Shown here: piece after piece, positions 35,047 to 52,139 of the stretch
Position numbering within the stretch: the stretch's first letter is position 1
Layout: each line of letters begins with the position of its first letter
NCBI RefSeq assembly: GCF_949774925.1
Contig: NZ_OX458932.1
Coordinates: 930,001 to 994,000, forward strand
Length of the DNA stretch: 64,000 nt
Direction: 5' to 3'
From: Candidatus Methylacidiphilum fumarolicum
Lineage (GTDB): Bacteria; Verrucomicrobiota; Verrucomicrobiia; Methylacidiphilales; Methylacidiphilaceae
Program-made: the position numbers and the translations under genes
The notes under the pieces: model-generated
What the model saw: the letters and a program-made list of their open reading frames with translations, nothing else
Database searches by the model: none
What the model was told of the DNA's origin: nothing

Positions 35047-35523
35047 GTATAGTTTATTGTTTAGGTGGACTCAAAATATGAGCGCTCTCTTTTTTCTCTT
35101 TCTTTTTCTGTAGTCCTTGAGCACTTTATTTAATTTTAATTAATTGTGATTTGTATTTATTAGGGTAAACAAAGACACACAACGGGATTGTTTGTTTTTT
35201 CCCATTTCATTTAAAAAATTTCTAAGATTTTTTCTGCAAAAATTTCTGCAAAAAAAATTTTGGCCTTAAGTATGAAGCACATTCTATCGCTATTTCAGAG
35301 CAAATTGCTCTCCTTAGGAACTTTGAAAGCTTTCAAAAAGATTTCAAATGACCATTATTGAAAGGGATTAACTAAGGAGATTAGATTCTCAAAAGATTTG
35401 GCAAACCAGAATCGAAGTTTTTTTGAAATTTAAAGCTTTCCTTTTTAACAAAAGAAGGGATGGGAATGTAGAGCGATATCAGTTCAATGGAACATTGTAA
35501 AGGCAGGACAATGTAGTCCGTAT

Positions 35524-35763
35524 GAATGGGGAGACATAATCTTGATACCCGATAAAGAACTTTGCCACAAGGAATATTTCAGCAGTCTTAATAAAACTCT
35601 TACAGACTATTCAGTTATAGCCATCTTGGAATGCGATGGAGGAAAAAGCGTTAGTAGGAACCTTACGGACTTATCCATTATCGCTCGTTCTGACTGCTTT
35701 CCTCGAATTCAGGAAGTGTAGGTTACCGTTTACGATATGATCTGTGAGCTTTTAATGGAATAG
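35524..35763 (+). pseudogene. Decayed fragment of the tandem-SIS gene (3' end)
   Basis: The reading frame ending at 35763 parallels the last ~55 codons of the gene at 50934-52139. From about 35597 the two translations agree at roughly two thirds of positions (IAIL..DGG, DLSIIxRSD, PRIQEV, TVY..ICELL). An in-frame TAG at 35719-35721 replaces the CAG codon of the intact gene. The upstream part (35524-35596) aligns only weakly. A partial duplicate or an older version of the gene left behind near the hydrogenase genes. Confidence 0.75.
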
Positions 35764-36022
35764 AAGTAAAAAGAAGAGGAGTGAGAAAACTTTTACGACC
35801 TCAAAAAAATTTTCCCTCTGCCGAAGATCTTAGGGATGAGCATTAATAGTCAAAAAACGAGCTTAGGGAAGATGATGAGAAATAGGATCTAAATATCTTA
35901 AAGCGACTAGTTGCTTTCACCGAAGTAAAAAGCATTCCTGTGCAGGTCCAGTAAGGAGAACTGATGTAGGTTGTCAGGAAAGGGTAAAAGGGTAAAGCTG
36001 TTCAAAAAAATAAAAATTTAAA

Positions 36023-36051
36023 TTGACATAAAATCTCCTCAAGAATAACCT
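36023..36051 (+). promoter_or_regulatory. Candidate sigma-70 promoter for the hydrogenase transcript
   Basis: TTGACA (36023-36028) is followed after 17 bases by TAACCT (36046-36051), a perfect -35 and a poor -10. Transcription would begin near 36058, about 44 bases ahead of the small membrane protein gene. Only pattern evidence. Confidence 0.35.
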
Positions 36052-36101
36052 CAGAAAAGGTAGTGAACTGTTTCTGCGTCAAAAAAAGGAGCAAGTCAAA
36101 G

Positions 36102-36212
36102 ATGAAGTTGTGGCGTTATCTTTTTTTAATTTTGTTTGCATGGGTGATTGTTGCAATTGTGATTCCGTCTTTTCCTGGGTTTGTTAGATATTTAAGAATA
36201 CGACAAATGTAA
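36102..36212 (+). CDS. 36-residue single-span membrane protein upstream of hhyS
   Basis: ATG 36102 to TAA 36212. GGAG lies about 10 bases upstream. The peptide MKLWRYLFLILFAWVIVAIV continues to IPSFPGFVRYLRIRQM: one hydrophobic span (about 6-21) and a basic tail that would face the cytoplasm. The start lies 84 bases before the hydrogenase small-subunit gene and behind the only promoter-like sequence. Because neither hydrogenase subunit has a membrane span or export signal, this could be its membrane anchor or assembly partner (inference). No homologue is claimed. Confidence 0.6.
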   Translation: MKLWRYLFLILFAWVIVAIVIPSFPGFVRYLRIRQM

Positions 36213-36295
36213 AGCAGGAGAAAAAAGAAAAGTTCGGCTAGATTGGGCATATAGGCATATAGAAACCCAAGCTGAACGAACAGGAGAAAAAAGAG

Positions 36296-37351
36296 ATGAA
36301 CAATACCGAACAGTCTGTTCAATCAAAGGAGCTTGAGGTTCATATATTATGGATCAATGCTGGCCTTTCATGTGACGGAGATTCTGTTGCGTTGACTGCT
36401 GCTAGCCAGCCTTCCATAGAGGACTTAGTGCTTGGAGTATTCCCTGGTCTTCCTAAAGTACAGTTTCATTGGCCGCTTATAGATTATCACACTGGCGATG
36501 ATTTTATCGAATGGTTTTTTAAAGCGGATCGTGGGGAAGTTGACCCCTTTATTTTAGTGGTTGAGGGTTCTATTCCGAATGAAAAAATAAAGGTTGAGGG
36601 ATACTGGGCTGGATTCGGAAATGATCCTTCCACCGGTCAACCAATGACAACCAGCCAATGGATTGATCGGTTGGCTCCTAAGGCATGGGCGGTTGTTGCT
36701 GCGGGAACATGTGCGACCTATGGTGGAGTGCATGCGATGGCTGGCAACCCGACAGGGGCAATGGGGCTTCCAGACTATCTAGGATGGAAGTGGAAATCGA
36801 AGGCAGGAATTCCTATTGTTTGTGTACCCGGTTGTCCCATTCAACCAGATAATCTTTCGGAAACGTTTCTTTATCTCCTTTATCAGGCTGCTGGGAAAGC
36901 ACCAATGATTCCTCTTGATGAAAATCTACGACCCAGTTGGCTTTTTGAACAAACTGTTCATGAAGGCTGTGATCGGGGAGGCTATTATGAACAGGGACAA
37001 TTTGTTAACGGGTATGGAGAAAAGGAGTGTCTGGTAAAGGTTGGTTGTTGGGGTCCGGTGGTAAAGTGCAATGTGCCAAAGAGAGGATGGATGGGGGGGA
37101 TTGGAGGATGTCCTAATGTTGGAGGGATATGCATTGGATGTACCATGCCCGGATTCCCAGATAAATTTATGCCTTTCATGGATGAGCCCCCTGGAGGAAT
37201 GGTCTCTTCAATGATAAGCGGTAATTATGGAACCCTCATTCGGAAGCTTCGTTCGATAACAGAACACACCGTTGAAAAAGAACCAAAGTGGAGACACAAT
37301 CGTCCAGAACTGACGACTGGTTATAAGCCTCATTGGCAACAAGGAGGATAA
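36296..37351 (+). CDS. hhyS: Group 1h (actinobacterial-type) [NiFe] hydrogenase small subunit
   Basis: 351 residues, preceded by AGGAG. Starts VHILWINAGLSCDGDS around residues 15-30: Cys26 is present but the second Cys of the usual CxxC is Asp29, the hallmark of the O2-tolerant high-affinity group. Other iron-sulfur ligands: GTCATYGG, PGCPIQPDN, HEGCDRGGYYEQ, EKECLVKVGCWGP, and GGCPNVGGICIGC. There is no twin-arginine signal and no C-terminal anchor, so the enzyme is not exported by itself. It passes electrons from H2 oxidised in the large subunit. Confidence 0.92.
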   Translation: MNNTEQSVQSKELEVHILWINAGLSCDGDSVALTAASQPSIEDLVLGVFPGLPKVQFHWPLIDYHTGDDFIEWFFKADRGEVDPFILVVEGSIPNEKIKVEGYWAGFGNDPSTGQPMTTSQWIDRLAPKAWAVVAAGTCATYGGVHAMAGNPTGAMGLPDYLGWKWKSKAGIPIVCVPGCPIQPDNLSETFLYLLYQAAGKAPMIPLDENLRPSWLFEQTVHEGCDRGGYYEQGQFVNGYGEKECLVKVGCWGPVVKCNVPKRGWMGGIGGCPNVGGICIGCTMPGFPDKFMPFMDEPPGGMVSSMISGNYGTLIRKLRSITEHTVEKEPKWRHNRPELTTGYKPHWQQGG

Positions 37352-37352
37352 T

Positions 37353-39167
37353 ATGGCTGATACAAAAACTACAGAGTTTGAGGAAGAAGTTTCTTCCAAA
37401 GGGAATTCTCGGATAGTGGAAATGTCTTGGGATCCTATTACTCGGATTGTGGGTAGTTTAGGAATTTATACGAAAATAGATTTTTCTCAAAGGAAAGTAG
37501 TGGAGTGTTTTAGTACCTCTTCGATATTTCGTGGCTACAGTATCTTTATGAAGGGGAAAGATCCTCGAGATGCTCACTTTATCACTAGTCGTATTTGTGG
37601 GATTTGTGGCGACAATCATGCTGCGTGTTCAGTTTACAATCAAAACATGGCTTTCAAAGTCAGACCACCGCATCTTGGAGAATGGATTTGTAATTTAGGT
37701 GAAGCAGCTGAGTACATGTTTGATCATTGCATTTTCCAGGAGAATTTAGTGGCTGTAGATTTTTGCGAAAAAATGGTCAAGGAAACCAATCCTGGAGTAT
37801 GGGAAAAAGCCACGCGAACAGAAGCCCCCAATGGGCATATTCATGGGTATAAGACTATTGCTGACATTATGCGAGCTTTCAATCCCATTGAAGGAGAGTT
37901 TTATCGCGAAGCTTTAGTGATGAGTCGTGTCACTAGAGAAATGTTCTGTTTAATGGAGGGAAGGCATGTTCATCCTTCTACTTTGTATGCTGGTGGGGTA
38001 GGGACTGTTCCCTCGGTACAGCTTTTTACTGATTATTTAACTAGATTGATGAAATACATAGACTGGGTGAAGAAAGCTGTACCTATGCATGACGATGTGT
38101 TTAATTTTTTTTATCAAGCTCTCCCTGGTTATGAAGAAGTAGGTAAAAGGCGAATATTACTTGGCTGTTGGAGTTCGCTCCCAGACCCCGAGTTTTGTGA
38201 CTTTCGGTATGAAACGATGACTGATTGGGCCAGAAAATCTTTCGTAACTCCAGGGATTGTGGTAGATGGGGAACTTTTGACTACAGACTTGGTAGAAATA
38301 AACTTGGGGATCCGAATATTGCTGGGGAGTTCCTATTATGACGATTGGGTGGAAAGCAATGGACATTATAGGGTAACACGAGATCCTTTAGGAAATCCTG
38401 TTGACCCCAGGCATCCTTGGAATGTGGACACTTTGCCTAAACCTCAAAAAAGGGATTTTAAAGGCAAATATAGTTGGGTAATGTCTCCCCGATGGTTTGA
38501 CAAGCGCTCCTATTTAGCTTTAGATACGGGAGGAGGCCCATTGGCTCGACTGTGGGTTACTGCTCTGGCCGGTTTGGTAAAGACTCCTTATGTCGAAGCT
38601 ACAGGTAATTCGGTGAAGATCCATTTACCCAAAACAGCTACGCGAGGACCACTGAGTCTAGAATGGAAAGTTCCTCAATGGTCCAACACGATTGAAAGGG
38701 ACCGAGCTAGAAGTTATTTCCAAGCCTATGCAGCGGGCTTAGGACTATATTTCGTTGAAAAAGCCTTAGAAGAGGTTCGAAAAGGGCATACGAAAACGTG
38801 GAACCCTTTTGAAGTGCCCAAGGAAGCAATCAGTTGTGGATTTACTGAAGCAGTGCGGGGGGTGCTTTCTCATCATATGATTATAGAAAATGGGAAGATT
38901 GCCAATTATCAACCTTGGCCGCCAACTCCATGGAATGCCAATCCGCGGGATATCTATGGGACACCTGGTCCTTATGAAGATGCAGTTCAGAATACGCCTA
39001 TTTTTGAGGAGAATAGTGAAGAGCATTTCAAAGGAATAGATATTATGCGCACAGTCCGAAGCTTCGATCCTTGTCTGCCTTGTGGAGTGCATATGTATTT
39101 ACCAAAAGGGAAAGTTGTTGAAGCTTATCATTCACCTACTTTTGCAGCGACTCAGTGGAAAAAGTAA
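37353..39167 (+). CDS. hhyL: Group 1h [NiFe] hydrogenase large subunit
   Basis: 604 residues, starting one base after the small-subunit stop behind AAGGAGG. NiFe ligands: N-terminal RICGICGDNHA and C-terminal DPCLPCGVH. A 24-residue extension (MYLPKG...TQWKK) follows the final His and is expected to be cut off by the maturation protease after nickel insertion. It oxidises H2 at trace levels in known relatives. The length is usual for the group. Confidence 0.93.
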   Translation: MADTKTTEFEEEVSSKGNSRIVEMSWDPITRIVGSLGIYTKIDFSQRKVVECFSTSSIFRGYSIFMKGKDPRDAHFITSRICGICGDNHAACSVYNQNMAFKVRPPHLGEWICNLGEAAEYMFDHCIFQENLVAVDFCEKMVKETNPGVWEKATRTEAPNGHIHGYKTIADIMRAFNPIEGEFYREALVMSRVTREMFCLMEGRHVHPSTLYAGGVGTVPSVQLFTDYLTRLMKYIDWVKKAVPMHDDVFNFFYQALPGYEEVGKRRILLGCWSSLPDPEFCDFRYETMTDWARKSFVTPGIVVDGELLTTDLVEINLGIRILLGSSYYDDWVESNGHYRVTRDPLGNPVDPRHPWNVDTLPKPQKRDFKGKYSWVMSPRWFDKRSYLALDTGGGPLARLWVTALAGLVKTPYVEATGNSVKIHLPKTATRGPLSLEWKVPQWSNTIERDRARSYFQAYAAGLGLYFVEKALEEVRKGHTKTWNPFEVPKEAISCGFTEAVRGVLSHHMIIENGKIANYQPWPPTPWNANPRDIYGTPGPYEDAVQNTPIFEENSEEHFKGIDIMRTVRSFDPCLPCGVHMYLPKGKVVEAYHSPTFAATQWKK

Positions 39168-41997: not shown

Positions 41998-43337
41998 TTG
42001 TTGTTATGGATCTTTCTCTTTGGATCCTCTCTCTCCTTTCTTTTTTGCCTGGTTTTTTTAATCTTTCTTTTCTTGCAGCTGGAGGTTCATTTCGCTGTGG
42101 CTTGGGCACAAGTAGTGGAGGATCCGCTCGATGGGGCCATGGAAAGGCATTTAAAAGATTCAAAGGAACCTTCAGGAAGCATTCCGACCATTTCTCTACC
42201 TGAAGTCACCGTCAGCGCTCAGACTGTTCCTTCCGAGTCTACTATTTTGCCTACCAGTCGACAGTTTTCTTCTTATGGTCCTGAAATGAACATCATAGAA
42301 ATTCCTCGCGACATTCGTCCAGTAAGTCAAGAGGAGATGAAAACGGTCATGGCTTTAACTGTAAATGACTTAGCCTCGTTTAACCCTTCGATAAATCCCA
42401 CTCAAGCGACGGGTAATATTGTTAGTGAACCTGTCATCCGGGGTCTGCCAGGCACAGTGTTTCGTAATGGAATGTTGGTTGGCTTTTCCAGTGGGGGTAA
42501 TTGGAGTCCTTTAATGAACACGATGGCTTATGGTTCTTTGGACATAGTGACTAGCCCAGTAAGTATTATATTTGGTCCTCAAGAATTTGCTGGGGGTTAC
42601 GTTAATGAGCTAACTAAACAGCCTTACTTTGATCGGTTTCATAGAAATGCTTCCTATACTTTTGGCATGTATGGGGATAGCTTTTGGAATGTAGATTTAG
42701 GCGGTCCAGTCAGGAAAACCAAAAAGCCGCTTTCAGAATAGATTATTTTGGGCAGGCTGGTTATGCCCCATTTAATTACTACGATGGGGCATATATGCAA
42801 AGGGAGGCCTTCTATTTAGCTTTTAGTGCCCATCCATGGGAAAATCTTTGGATCGACTGTAATGGAGAACTGGATCTCAACAATTTTGTTCCTTACGCAG
42901 GACTTAATCGGCCTACGGCTGCTCTTATCCAGGATGGGCTTTACAAGACAGGGAGTTGGATTGGATCAATAGGTCCCACAGGAGCTTTTATTCCTGGTCA
43001 TGTTATCCCGCCTCCTTCTGGAGGATACGTGATAGATTTTGGGCCTGAAGTTCCGATTAGCGGCAGAAACAACATCTTCAATAGTCCTTTGAAATTCACA
43101 CTTCAAACCTATGGAGTTTTTCAACCGATTATCCGGTTGGAGGTTAACGACCGGCTGCGGATTGTTAATAACCTTATGATCGAATATTTTCGAACGGAAA
43201 TTGGCCAACCGGTGCCTATGGACACTTGGGCTTTTCTTATTCTTCTTTTAATCAGTTTAATTTTTATTATATTTTCGGTAATTTCTTTTCTTATTGGCTT
43301 TCTCTATGGAATATGGAGTCTTTTTCTTCTTTTTTAG
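41998..43337 (+). pseudogene. Truncated and frameshifted TonB-dependent receptor
   Basis: Signal-peptide-like N-terminus, then LPEVTVSAQ and a plug domain with PVIRGLPGTVFRNGMLVGF up to about 42720. An A-rich stretch (42712-42724) shifts the frame: the barrel continues as AAFRIDYFGQAGYAPFNYYD from the other frame. The barrel stops near VPMDTWAF (about 43225) and runs into an unrelated hydrophobic tail ending at 43337, so only about 430 of the usual 700-plus residues remain. Likely dead; its ligand is unknown, and iron or nickel uptake are guesses. Confidence 0.7.
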
Positions 43338-43344
43338 TGCAGGA

Positions 43345-43428
43345 ATGAGAAAAATTGGAGGAGCATTTCTCTGTGGCGCCTTCTTAATGTTATTGTCTGG
43401 ATTTTTTTATGGATCATACGAAAAATAG
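43345..43428 (+). CDS. Possible 27-residue hydrophobic peptide
   Basis: ATG 43345 to TAG 43428 reads MRKIGGAFLCGAFLMLLSGF then FYGSYEK, a single hydrophobic helix. It overlaps the next gene start by about 20 bases in another frame. No homologue known; could be a receptor remnant. Confidence 0.25.
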   Translation: MRKIGGAFLCGAFLMLLSGFFYGSYEK

Positions 43429-43738
43429 CTCACAAGATTTTAAAGTAAGGCTAAAAGAAGCTCAAGCCCATTTCTTAGAATCTTTAAAGCGCGTTAGTAA
43501 AAACTTATCTAATGAAAACATCCTTTTGATCAGCTTGATCATAGGAATTATTATAGGTCTTCTCTTATATTCTCTCCGGTGGATTCTTTCCAAAATAATC
43601 CGAATTGGTTTCTTATATTATATTCTTCAACAATTATGGAATATACTAACTAAAGATAATCAAAAAACGGATTCCAAGACATCATCAGAGACTTCCAACA
43701 GTCCATCCAAGGAGAACGAATCCCCAGCAACTAATTAA
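43409..43738 (+). CDS. Small membrane protein of unknown function
   Basis: 109 residues. A charged N-terminal helix (residues 1-38), one or two membrane spans (about 39-72: LLISLIIGIIIGLLLY and the following WILSKIIRIGFLYYILQQLW), and a Ser/Asn/Lys-rich tail. Resembles small YtxH-like or inner-membrane proteins in layout only. No family recognised. Confidence 0.45.
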   Translation: MDHTKNSSQDFKVRLKEAQAHFLESLKRVSKNLSNENILLISLIIGIIIGLLLYSLRWILSKIIRIGFLYYILQQLWNILTKDNQKTDSKTSSETSNSPSKENESPATN

Positions 43739-49923: not shown

Positions 49924-50940
49924 ATGAAACAGGAACAGTGCATAGAACTGGCTCATGGAGCGGGAGGCAAATCGAGTAGAAGGTTAATTGAACAGGTGAT
50001 ATTGGCTGAATGCAGGAACCCACTTTTAGAGCCTCTTGCTGATGCTGCGATTATCGAATGGGATAAAACCAGATATGCGCTGACAACAGACAGTTATGTG
50101 ATCAGCCCCTTAGTATTTCCGGGTGGATCCATTGGTGAACTTGCGGTCAACGGGACTGTTAATGACCTAGCTGTTTCGGGAGCAAAGCCTTTGGTTATTT
50201 TATCCAGTTGGATTCTGGAAGCAGGACTTTCAATGGAGGTTTTTCAACGGGAAGTCAAAGCCATGGCTCGGGCTGCAAAAGCTGCCTCGGTTATTATTGC
50301 TGGAGGGGATACAAAAGTCGTTGAGCACGGAAAAGGAGACGGGCTTTATATTACAACGACTGGGTATGGACTTGTGGAGCCAGGGGTGAATTTAGGTCCT
50401 CATAGAGTGGAAGTTGGAGATAAAATTTTACTTTCAGGTCCTATCGGTGACCATGGGATTACAGTTCTTTTAGCCAGAGGAGAAATAGAACTGGAAGCAA
50501 CTCTTCAGACAGATAGCCGACCTCTTTGGCCAATAATTGAACCTATGATTAGATTGGAGCCTGCGGCTATTAAGTGGATGCGGGATCCTACAAGGGGAGG
50601 CTTGGCTTCAGTCCTTAATGAACTTGCCCATGACATTGGCTTTGGAATAATGATCGAAGAGGAGTCGATTCCAATTCGTCAAGAAGTTCGAGGAGCTTGT
50701 GAGATCTTGGGCCTGGATCCCCTGCACATAGCTTCTGAAGGACAATTTGTTGCTGTTGTGGATCAGAAGAAGGCCGTTGATTTTCAAAAGCTGCTAAATG
50801 ACATTCCTGGAGGGGAAGAAGCTAGAATTATTGGGGTAATTTCAAACAAACCTCCTGGGAAAGTGGTTGCTCTTTCTGGATATGGTGGGAGTCGGATGGT
50901 TGATATGCTGATAGGAGATCCCTTGCCAAGGATATGTTAA
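49924..50940 (+). CDS. hypE: Hydrogenase cyanide-forming protein HypE
   Basis: 338 residues from ATG 49924 (TTG 49906 possible). The C-terminus ends PRIC, whose Cys is carbamoylated by HypF and dehydrated to thiocyanate. ELAHGAGGKSSRRLIEQ, VNGTVNDLAVSGAKP and MRDPTRGGLASVLNEL are family motifs. The stop overlaps the next gene by seven bases. Confidence 0.95.
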   Translation: MKQEQCIELAHGAGGKSSRRLIEQVILAECRNPLLEPLADAAIIEWDKTRYALTTDSYVISPLVFPGGSIGELAVNGTVNDLAVSGAKPLVILSSWILEAGLSMEVFQREVKAMARAAKAASVIIAGGDTKVVEHGKGDGLYITTTGYGLVEPGVNLGPHRVEVGDKILLSGPIGDHGITVLLARGEIELEATLQTDSRPLWPIIEPMIRLEPAAIKWMRDPTRGGLASVLNELAHDIGFGIMIEEESIPIRQEVRGACEILGLDPLHIASEGQFVAVVDQKKAVDFQKLLNDIPGGEEARIIGVISNKPPGKVVALSGYGGSRMVDMLIGDPLPRIC

Positions 50941-52139
50941 GGAAAGAAAAAATACCAAAAGATCTTAATTGGATAAGACAGCGGGTTGAAAAGCGAAACG
51001 AGCTCTCGGCCTTGTTTTTCCAAAAAGAAGCTTTATCATTGGCAACAATATGCCAGCAGATTGCTAGCCGGTTTTTGAATGGAGGTAGAATTTTGGCTTT
51101 TGGTCGAGGCTCTTCTCAAACTGATGCACAGCATGTTGCGGTAGAGTTTGTCCATCCTGTAATCGTTGGCAAACGAGCGCTGCCGGCTTTAGATATCTCA
51201 GCGGATTTTTTTAATTGGCTTAAGGCCATCTGCAGGGCTAATGACATTGTTTTTGGATTCAGTGGAATTGAAGGAGATGTTTTGGTTGAAAAGGCCATTG
51301 ACCTGGCGATGGGAAGGGGAGCTTTGACTTTAGCGCTGCCTGGAAAGAGGGGAAGTTATTTTATAGACAATCCTTCTGAAGATCCTTTTATATTTCAAGA
51401 GATCGTCGAAATCCTTTATCACACCTTATGGGAAACGGTGCATCTTTTTTTTGAACATCGTCATTTAGGACAATCGGGAGGAGAAGCACATTTTCTCTAT
51501 CCCTTTTTGGGTATAGATGGTCAGCCAGAGGCAGGGATTATTGAGGAGGTGAGTTGGTCAATACGAGAAAAAGCCAAAGAAGATGAAAGATTAAGATTAC
51601 AGGTGGTAGAAGATGAGGGCGAAAAGATTCTTCAGGCAGCAAAACTACTTAAAGAAAAAAGTCAACAGGGAGCTAAAATTATCCTCTTTGGCAATGGAGG
51701 ATCAGCTACGGATGCCAATGACTTTGCTTTAGACCTACTGAATATATCTGTGGAATGGCCCAAACCTTTGACTGCCTATTCATTATCTATGGAACCAGCC
51801 GTGATCTCTGCGCTGGCCAATGATGTTGGAGCAGAAGTCATTTTTTCGCGTCAATTGATGGCCCATTTAGAATCTGGAGATATTGTAGTTGGAATTTCGA
51901 CAAGTGGTGGATCACGCAATGTTTTGACCTGTTTTGAGGAAGCAAGGAAAAAGGGGCTTTCTACTATTGCCATTTTGGGATACGATGGAGGGGAGATCGT
52001 TTGTAGGGGACTTGCTGACCTATCCATTATCGTTCGTTCTGACTACATTCCTCGTATCCAAGAAGTGCAGGCTACCGTTTACCATTTGATCTGTGAGCTT
52101 TTAAGGGAAAAGGAACCAATCGGAAAGAGTCCAGAATAG
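50934..52139 (+). CDS. Tandem-SIS-domain protein (GmhA-like) in the hyp operon
   Basis: 401 residues with two phosphosugar-binding SIS halves: about 25-190 (GRILAFGRGSSQTDAQHVAVEF) and 210-390 (AKIILFGNGGSATDANDFALDLL then GDIVVGISTSGGSRNV). The second half retains GmhA-like motifs; the first is less canonical (VFGFSGIEGDVL in place of IS.SG.S). GmhA isomerises sedoheptulose 7-phosphate, but the location inside the hyp operon and overlap with hypE argue for a hydrogenase-linked role. Unknown in detail. Confidence 0.7.
   Translation: MLRKEKIPKDLNWIRQRVEKRNELSALFFQKEALSLATICQQIASRFLNGGRILAFGRGSSQTDAQHVAVEFVHPVIVGKRALPALDISADFFNWLKAICRANDIVFGFSGIEGDVLVEKAIDLAMGRGALTLALPGKRGSYFIDNPSEDPFIFQEIVEILYHTLWETVHLFFEHRHLGQSGGEAHFLYPFLGIDGQPEAGIIEEVSWSIREKAKEDERLRLQVVEDEGEKILQAAKLLKEKSQQGAKIILFGNGGSATDANDFALDLLNISVEWPKPLTAYSLSMEPAVISALANDVGAEVIFSRQLMAHLESGDIVVGISTSGGSRNVLTCFEEARKKGLSTIAILGYDGGEIVCRGLADLSIIVRSDYIPRIQEVQATVYHLICELLREKEPIGKSPE

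What the first reader, a model, noticed from the sequence alone, without database searches (positions are those of the whole stretch)
36102..36212. Untracked 36-residue membrane peptide in front of the group 1h hydrogenase genes
The hydrogenase subunits have no export signal or anchor, yet group 1h enzymes must hand electrons to the membrane quinone pool. A one-span basic-tailed peptide 84 bases upstream of hhyS, with a ribosome site and a TTGACA promoter element, could be the missing membrane link or assembly factor. I know of no described small subunit at this position in this lineage.
Basis: partly seen in the sequence, partly recalled or inferred. Interest (0 to 1): 0.7.

Follow-up and report, generated by a model that had tools for sequence, protein, structure and literature searches.

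The report
Tiny membrane-peptide gene before hydrogenase genes
Just before the genes of an enzyme that lets a volcanic methane-eater burn hydrogen lies a 36-amino-acid gene that looks real in this strain and could hold the enzyme at the membrane, but its only relative shows a one-base break there, possibly a sequencing error, so it is a good lead and not a proven gene.

Summary
The open reading frame is present as described: ATG 36102 to TAA 36212, AAGGAG 10 bases before the ATG, TTGACA at 36023, and 83 bases before hhyS. A hydrophobic, ribosome-site-preceded ORF this long occurred in 0 of 300 shuffles and nowhere else in about 50 kb of this genome's intergenic DNA. hhySL occurs in only one other genome of the phylum sampled, M. 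kamchatkense Kam1. There the frame is broken by a missing T in a T7 run, though residues 8-36 are 96% identical in a shifted frame. Substitutions lean towards coding (4 of 7 in third positions; permutation p = 0.04). The evidence favours a translated peptide in SolV (about 0.6) without settling it. It has no Cys or His, so it cannot carry electrons; a weak tether or assembly aid is the most plausible role (about 0.35). No counterpart precedes hhyS in about 105 other loci. A stable conserved hairpin separates it from hhyS.

The parts
36023..36051 (+). Putative promoter: TTGACA (36023-36028), 17-base spacer, TAACCT (36046-36051); Kam1 has TAAAAT as second hexamer
   Evidence: Read from sequence and SolV/Kam1 alignment; too weak in SolV for the consensus scan
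36086..36091 (+). Ribosome-binding site AAGGAG of the small ORF, 10 bases before its ATG
   Evidence: Sequence, also present in Kam1
36102..36212 (+). Small ORF, 36 aa, one predicted transmembrane helix with basic C-terminal tail; no Cys or His
   Evidence: helix 3-34 predicted from single sequence, pLDDT 84
36121..36127 (+). T7 run where Kam1 has T6, which breaks the frame in the Kam1 assembly
36215..36228 (+). First copy of 14-base repeat CAGGAGAAAAAAGA (ribosome-site-like), just after the small ORF's stop
36232..36281 (+). RNA hairpin between the small ORF and hhyS, stable in both species (z -4.3 and -4.0); one outer-stem position is G-U in SolV and G-C in Kam1
36281..36294 (+). Second copy of the 14-base repeat, holding the ribosome site of hhyS
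36296..37351 (+). hhyS, group 1h [NiFe] hydrogenase small subunit
   Evidence: PF01058 and PF14720; 65-76% identical to hydrogenase small subunits on plasmids; published as MfumV2_0978-9 pair
37353..39167 (+). hhyL, hydrogenase large subunit
   Evidence: PF00374

Best explanation
The ORF is a translated small gene, the first cistron of the hhySL transcript in M. fumariolicum SolV. Its product is a single membrane helix with a short basic tail. Most likely it holds the cytoplasmic HhySL dimer loosely at the inner membrane, or helps it assemble there, close to the quinone pool. It cannot pass electrons itself. Shown: ORF, ribosome site, hydrophobicity, position, rarity, near-identical C-terminal 29 residues in Kam1. 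Inferred: transcription start, translation, topology, binding to HhySL, tether role.
For: Such an ORF is rare by chance (0/300 shuffles; the only one in about 50 kb of intergenic DNA). SolV/Kam1 substitutions keep the residues (2 amino-acid changes against 4.3 expected, p = 0.04; 4 of 7 in third positions; stop TAA to TGA). Published biochemistry needs such a factor: Hyd-1h lacks helix and signal but is weakly membrane-bound, and Km rises from 140 to 300 nM on purification (PMC7174314). HhyE, the partner known from mycobacteria, is absent (PMC6688271, PMC6883350). Related high-affinity hydrogenase operons carry small one-helix proteins (PMC9561532; seen directly in L173 and L174).
Against: In the Kam1 assembly the ATG frame ends after 8 codons (MKLWRCLF*). 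One gap in 111 bases fits intergenic DNA (12.2 gaps per kb) better than coding (0.55 per kb), about 4 to 1. Identity (93.6%) is only average for the region, so conservation alone says nothing. No homologue outside these two genomes. No expression or interaction data. Other membrane proteins of the cluster are rival tethers.
Confidence: 0.35

Rival explanations
1. Chance ORF. The stretch is untranslated 5' leader of the hhySL mRNA (promoter, spacer, hairpin, ribosome site); its T-rich DNA happens to read as a hydrophobic peptide.
For: Frame broken in Kam1 as intergenic DNA would allow; no homologues elsewhere; the leader holds a stable hairpin of its own; identity no higher than neighbouring DNA.
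Against: 0 of 300 shuffles and no other such ORF in about 50 kb of intergenic DNA; substitutions favour the frame; well-placed ribosome site in both species.
Confidence: 0.35
2. A real small gene in SolV that is decaying or restarted in Kam1: the T deletion is genuine and Kam1 either lost the peptide or makes a shorter form (about 33 aa) from an in-frame GTG eight bases after the old ATG.
For: Kam1 keeps residues 8-36 open and 96% identical in the shifted frame.
Against: Kam1 assembly is biased to lose homopolymer bases inside genes (about 20 against 3); the GTG would lie far from AAGGAG.
Confidence: 0.2
3. Regulatory leader peptide: its translation controls hhyS translation through the hairpin; the product itself does nothing.
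For: Stable conserved hairpin between the two frames, flanked by a duplicated ribosome-site motif.
Against: No terminator-like site; no run of one codon type; hhyS has its own ribosome site after the hairpin; amino-acid sparing substitutions.
Confidence: 0.1
4. The membrane partner of Hyd-1h is another protein, such as the 109-aa membrane protein at 43409-43738, apparently one of the two hypothetical membrane proteins (MfumV2_0985-6) noted by Schmitz et al. (assignment by gene order, not checked). This bears on function, not on whether the small ORF is a gene.
For: Two such proteins are named in PMC7174314; the 43409 protein is present in Kam1 over its whole length at 79% identity.
Against: It sits before the hyp maturation genes, not beside hhySL; no Pfam match; no evidence of binding.
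Confidence: 0.25

Closest known systems
HylTM1-5 of group 1l [NiFe] hydrogenases
   Same: Small one-helix membrane proteins encoded in the structural operon of a high-affinity uptake hydrogenase
   Different: About 97-124 aa in L173/L174, several per operon, placed on the 3' side of the small-subunit gene; here one peptide of 36 aa, 5' of hhyS, with no convincing sequence similarity
Single-helix small proteins of group 1m hydrogenase clusters (PMC9561532)
   Same: Single transmembrane helix, no known domain, in a high-affinity hydrogenase cluster
   Different: 82-92 aa; cluster of a different hydrogenase group
HucM of mycobacterial Huc (group 2a)
   Same: Non-redox protein that links a soluble hydrogenase to membrane and quinone
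   [quoted passage not shown] far larger
HhyE of group 1h operons in Mycobacterium
   Same: Accessory protein encoded with hhySL; HhyE is needed for activity there
   Different: Iron-sulfur protein; this peptide has no Cys or His; HhyE is absent from Methylacidiphilum

Membership tests
Protein-coding small ORF | Start, stop, ribosome site, more than chance | tested here: met
Protein-coding small ORF | Frame intact in relatives that keep hhySL | tested here: inconclusive
   Only Kam1 available; broken by one T in a homopolymer, plausible but unproven assembly error
Protein-coding small ORF | Substitutions biased to spare amino acids | tested here: inconclusive
   p = 0.04 with only 7 substitutions
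Protein-coding small ORF | Translation seen | not testable with these tools
   No ribosome profiling or mass-spectrometry data at hand
Single-span membrane protein | One hydrophobic stretch of about 20 residues | tested here: met
   KD-19 maximum 2.6; helix 3-34 in model
Redox subunit (cytochrome or Fe-S) | Cys or His ligands | tested here: not met
   No Cys or His in the 36 residues
HylTM-type hydrogenase accessory (group 1l) | Sequence similarity to such proteins and a tail of about 70 residues | tested here: not met
   36 aa only; only a short hydrophobic match to the proteins seen in L173/L174
Group 1h accessory gene conserved with hhySL | Small membrane ORF upstream of hhyS in other group 1h loci | tested here: not met
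   About 105 loci screened, no comparable ORF

The most novel reading that the evidence does not exclude
A 36-residue lineage-specific membrane peptide is the tether that lets Methylacidiphilum Hyd-1h work at the membrane without HhyE, and so sets its high affinity for H2.
Probability: 0.2. Interest if true: 0.75.

Novelty: new variant of a known kind. Interest (0 to 1): 0.42.

Why it matters
How the group 1h hydrogenase of strain SolV associates with the membrane is a stated open question, and that association appears to set its affinity for H2 (PMC7174314). A small gene directly in front of hhySL is a cheap, specific candidate that the papers read here do not mention, and one PCR product would settle the main doubt.

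Tried and rejected
Rfam search of the leader: nothing above threshold. Terminator or attenuator reading: no terminator-like site. Hairpin as copy of a repeat family: unique in both genomes. Homologues of the peptide in the family, on plasmids and (by DNA pattern) in viral contigs: none but Kam1. Counterparts upstream of hhyS in actinobacteria, Chloroflexota, Methylocystis and Cupriavidus: none; four weakly hydrophobic ORFs in Chloroflexota look unrelated. Leader conservation as evidence for function: rejected, because aligned intergenic DNA of the two species averages 90% identity. Redox-link reading: rejected for lack of ligands. The structure prediction is of a single sequence and only shows a helix.

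Full report
What is there. The window is bases 930001-994000 of a single 2,476,671-base contig, in agreement with M. fumariolicum SolV (2,476,673 in PMC4210602). The 36-codon frame 36102-36212 is present as stated, with AAGGAG 10 bases before its ATG and 83 bases to the ATG of hhyS. TTGACA at 36023 has only a weak second hexamer in SolV (TAACCT) but a good one in Kam1 (TAAAAT), at the same 17-base spacing.

Is it more than chance? A hydrophobic ORF of at least 36 codons with a ribosome site appeared in 0 of 300 dinucleotide shuffles of the 1.46-kb upstream region, and in 1 of 300 with the hydropathy bar lowered to 2.0. Within 400 kb of this genome it was the only intergenic ORF of 30-80 codons that met these criteria. 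The criteria were chosen after seeing the ORF, so the true probability is somewhat higher.

Relatives. Among 62 genomes of the order and 388 sampled from the phylum, only one other keeps hhyS: G010, 2,202,032 bases, consistent with M. kamchatkense Kam1 (PMC6688271 reports that Kam1 and SolV, but not V4, have it). The frame there is broken: SolV reads CTTTTTTTAATTTTG where Kam1 reads CTTTTTTAGTGTTG, so Kam1's ATG frame ends after 8 codons. The remaining residues are open in the shifted frame and 96% identical over 29 residues.

Is the break real? I aligned 400 kb of each genome. In the cores of SolV ORFs Kam1 was short by one base in homopolymers of five or more about 20 times, SolV 3 times. 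For A/T runs of seven, Kam1 was one short in 2 of 217 comparable coding runs and 5 of 28 intergenic ones. The break may thus be an artefact, but a deletion is also likelier in non-coding DNA. One gap in 111 bases favours non-coding about 4 to 1 (0.057 against 0.23), and the codon positions of the substitutions favour coding about 4 to 1 (my arithmetic). The comparison as a whole is neutral, so the verdict rests on the chance test and the position.

What could it do? The model is one helix, residues 3-34, with Lys and Arg at the start and three Arg in the tail. The charge rule gives no clear topology. There is no Cys or His, so no heme or Fe-S cluster can be held. Published work shows that Hyd-1h of SolV has no helix or signal yet is weakly membrane-bound, and that its affinity drops when it is taken off the membrane. 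HhyE is absent. Small one-helix proteins occur in group 1l and 1m clusters. In two Chloroflexota loci with small subunits 48% identical to HhyS I found rows of one-helix proteins of about 97-124 aa beside the small subunit, which look like group 1l by arrangement; the group was not tested. A tether or assembly aid is therefore plausible by analogy, not by homology.

Specificity. No comparable ORF precedes hhyS in about 105 other loci. If real, the peptide belongs, as far as searched, to Methylacidiphilum alone.

The leader. A hairpin at 36232-36281 folds much better than shuffles in both species (z -4.3 and -4.0) and is flanked by two copies of CAGGAGAAAAAAGA, the second holding the hhyS ribosome site. 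It is unique in both genomes. A hairpin there could separate or stabilise the hhySL message; this is inference.

Verdict. Probably a real small gene in SolV (about 0.6), with the tether role at about 0.35. The confidences of the rivals overlap, since the question of the other membrane proteins is separate from whether this ORF is translated. Interest is moderate because one sequencing read in Kam1 could change the answer either way.

Noticed in passing
window 36215-36294: Stable hairpin (36232-36281) between the small ORF and hhyS, flanked by a perfect 14-base direct repeat that holds the hhyS ribosome site; conserved in Kam1 and unique in both genomes.
   Followed up: partly
window 35262-35926: 665-base stretch without counterpart in Kam1 at this place, directly upstream of the hhy leader; it contains a fragment (35616-35763, 81% identical) of the 3' end of the SIS-domain gene found at 50934-52139.
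   Followed up: partly
G010 (Kam1) contig: Kam1 assembly is one base short in homopolymers inside many ORFs (about 20 against 3 in 400 kb), hyhL included; frameshifts in this genome should be read with care.
   Followed up: yes
L173 and L174: Chloroflexota hydrogenase operons (small subunit 48% identical to HhyS) with a row of one-helix proteins of about 97-124 aa on the 3' side of the small-subunit gene; reminiscent of HylTM proteins.
   Followed up: partly
window 41998-43337: Two overlapping frames read like a broken TonB-type receptor gene (by eye, not tested) in the middle of the hydrogenase cluster.
   Followed up: no
plasmid records H3, H5-H10: Public annotation names the group 1h small subunit 'hydrogenase expression protein HypE', apparently a misnomer.
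   Followed up: no
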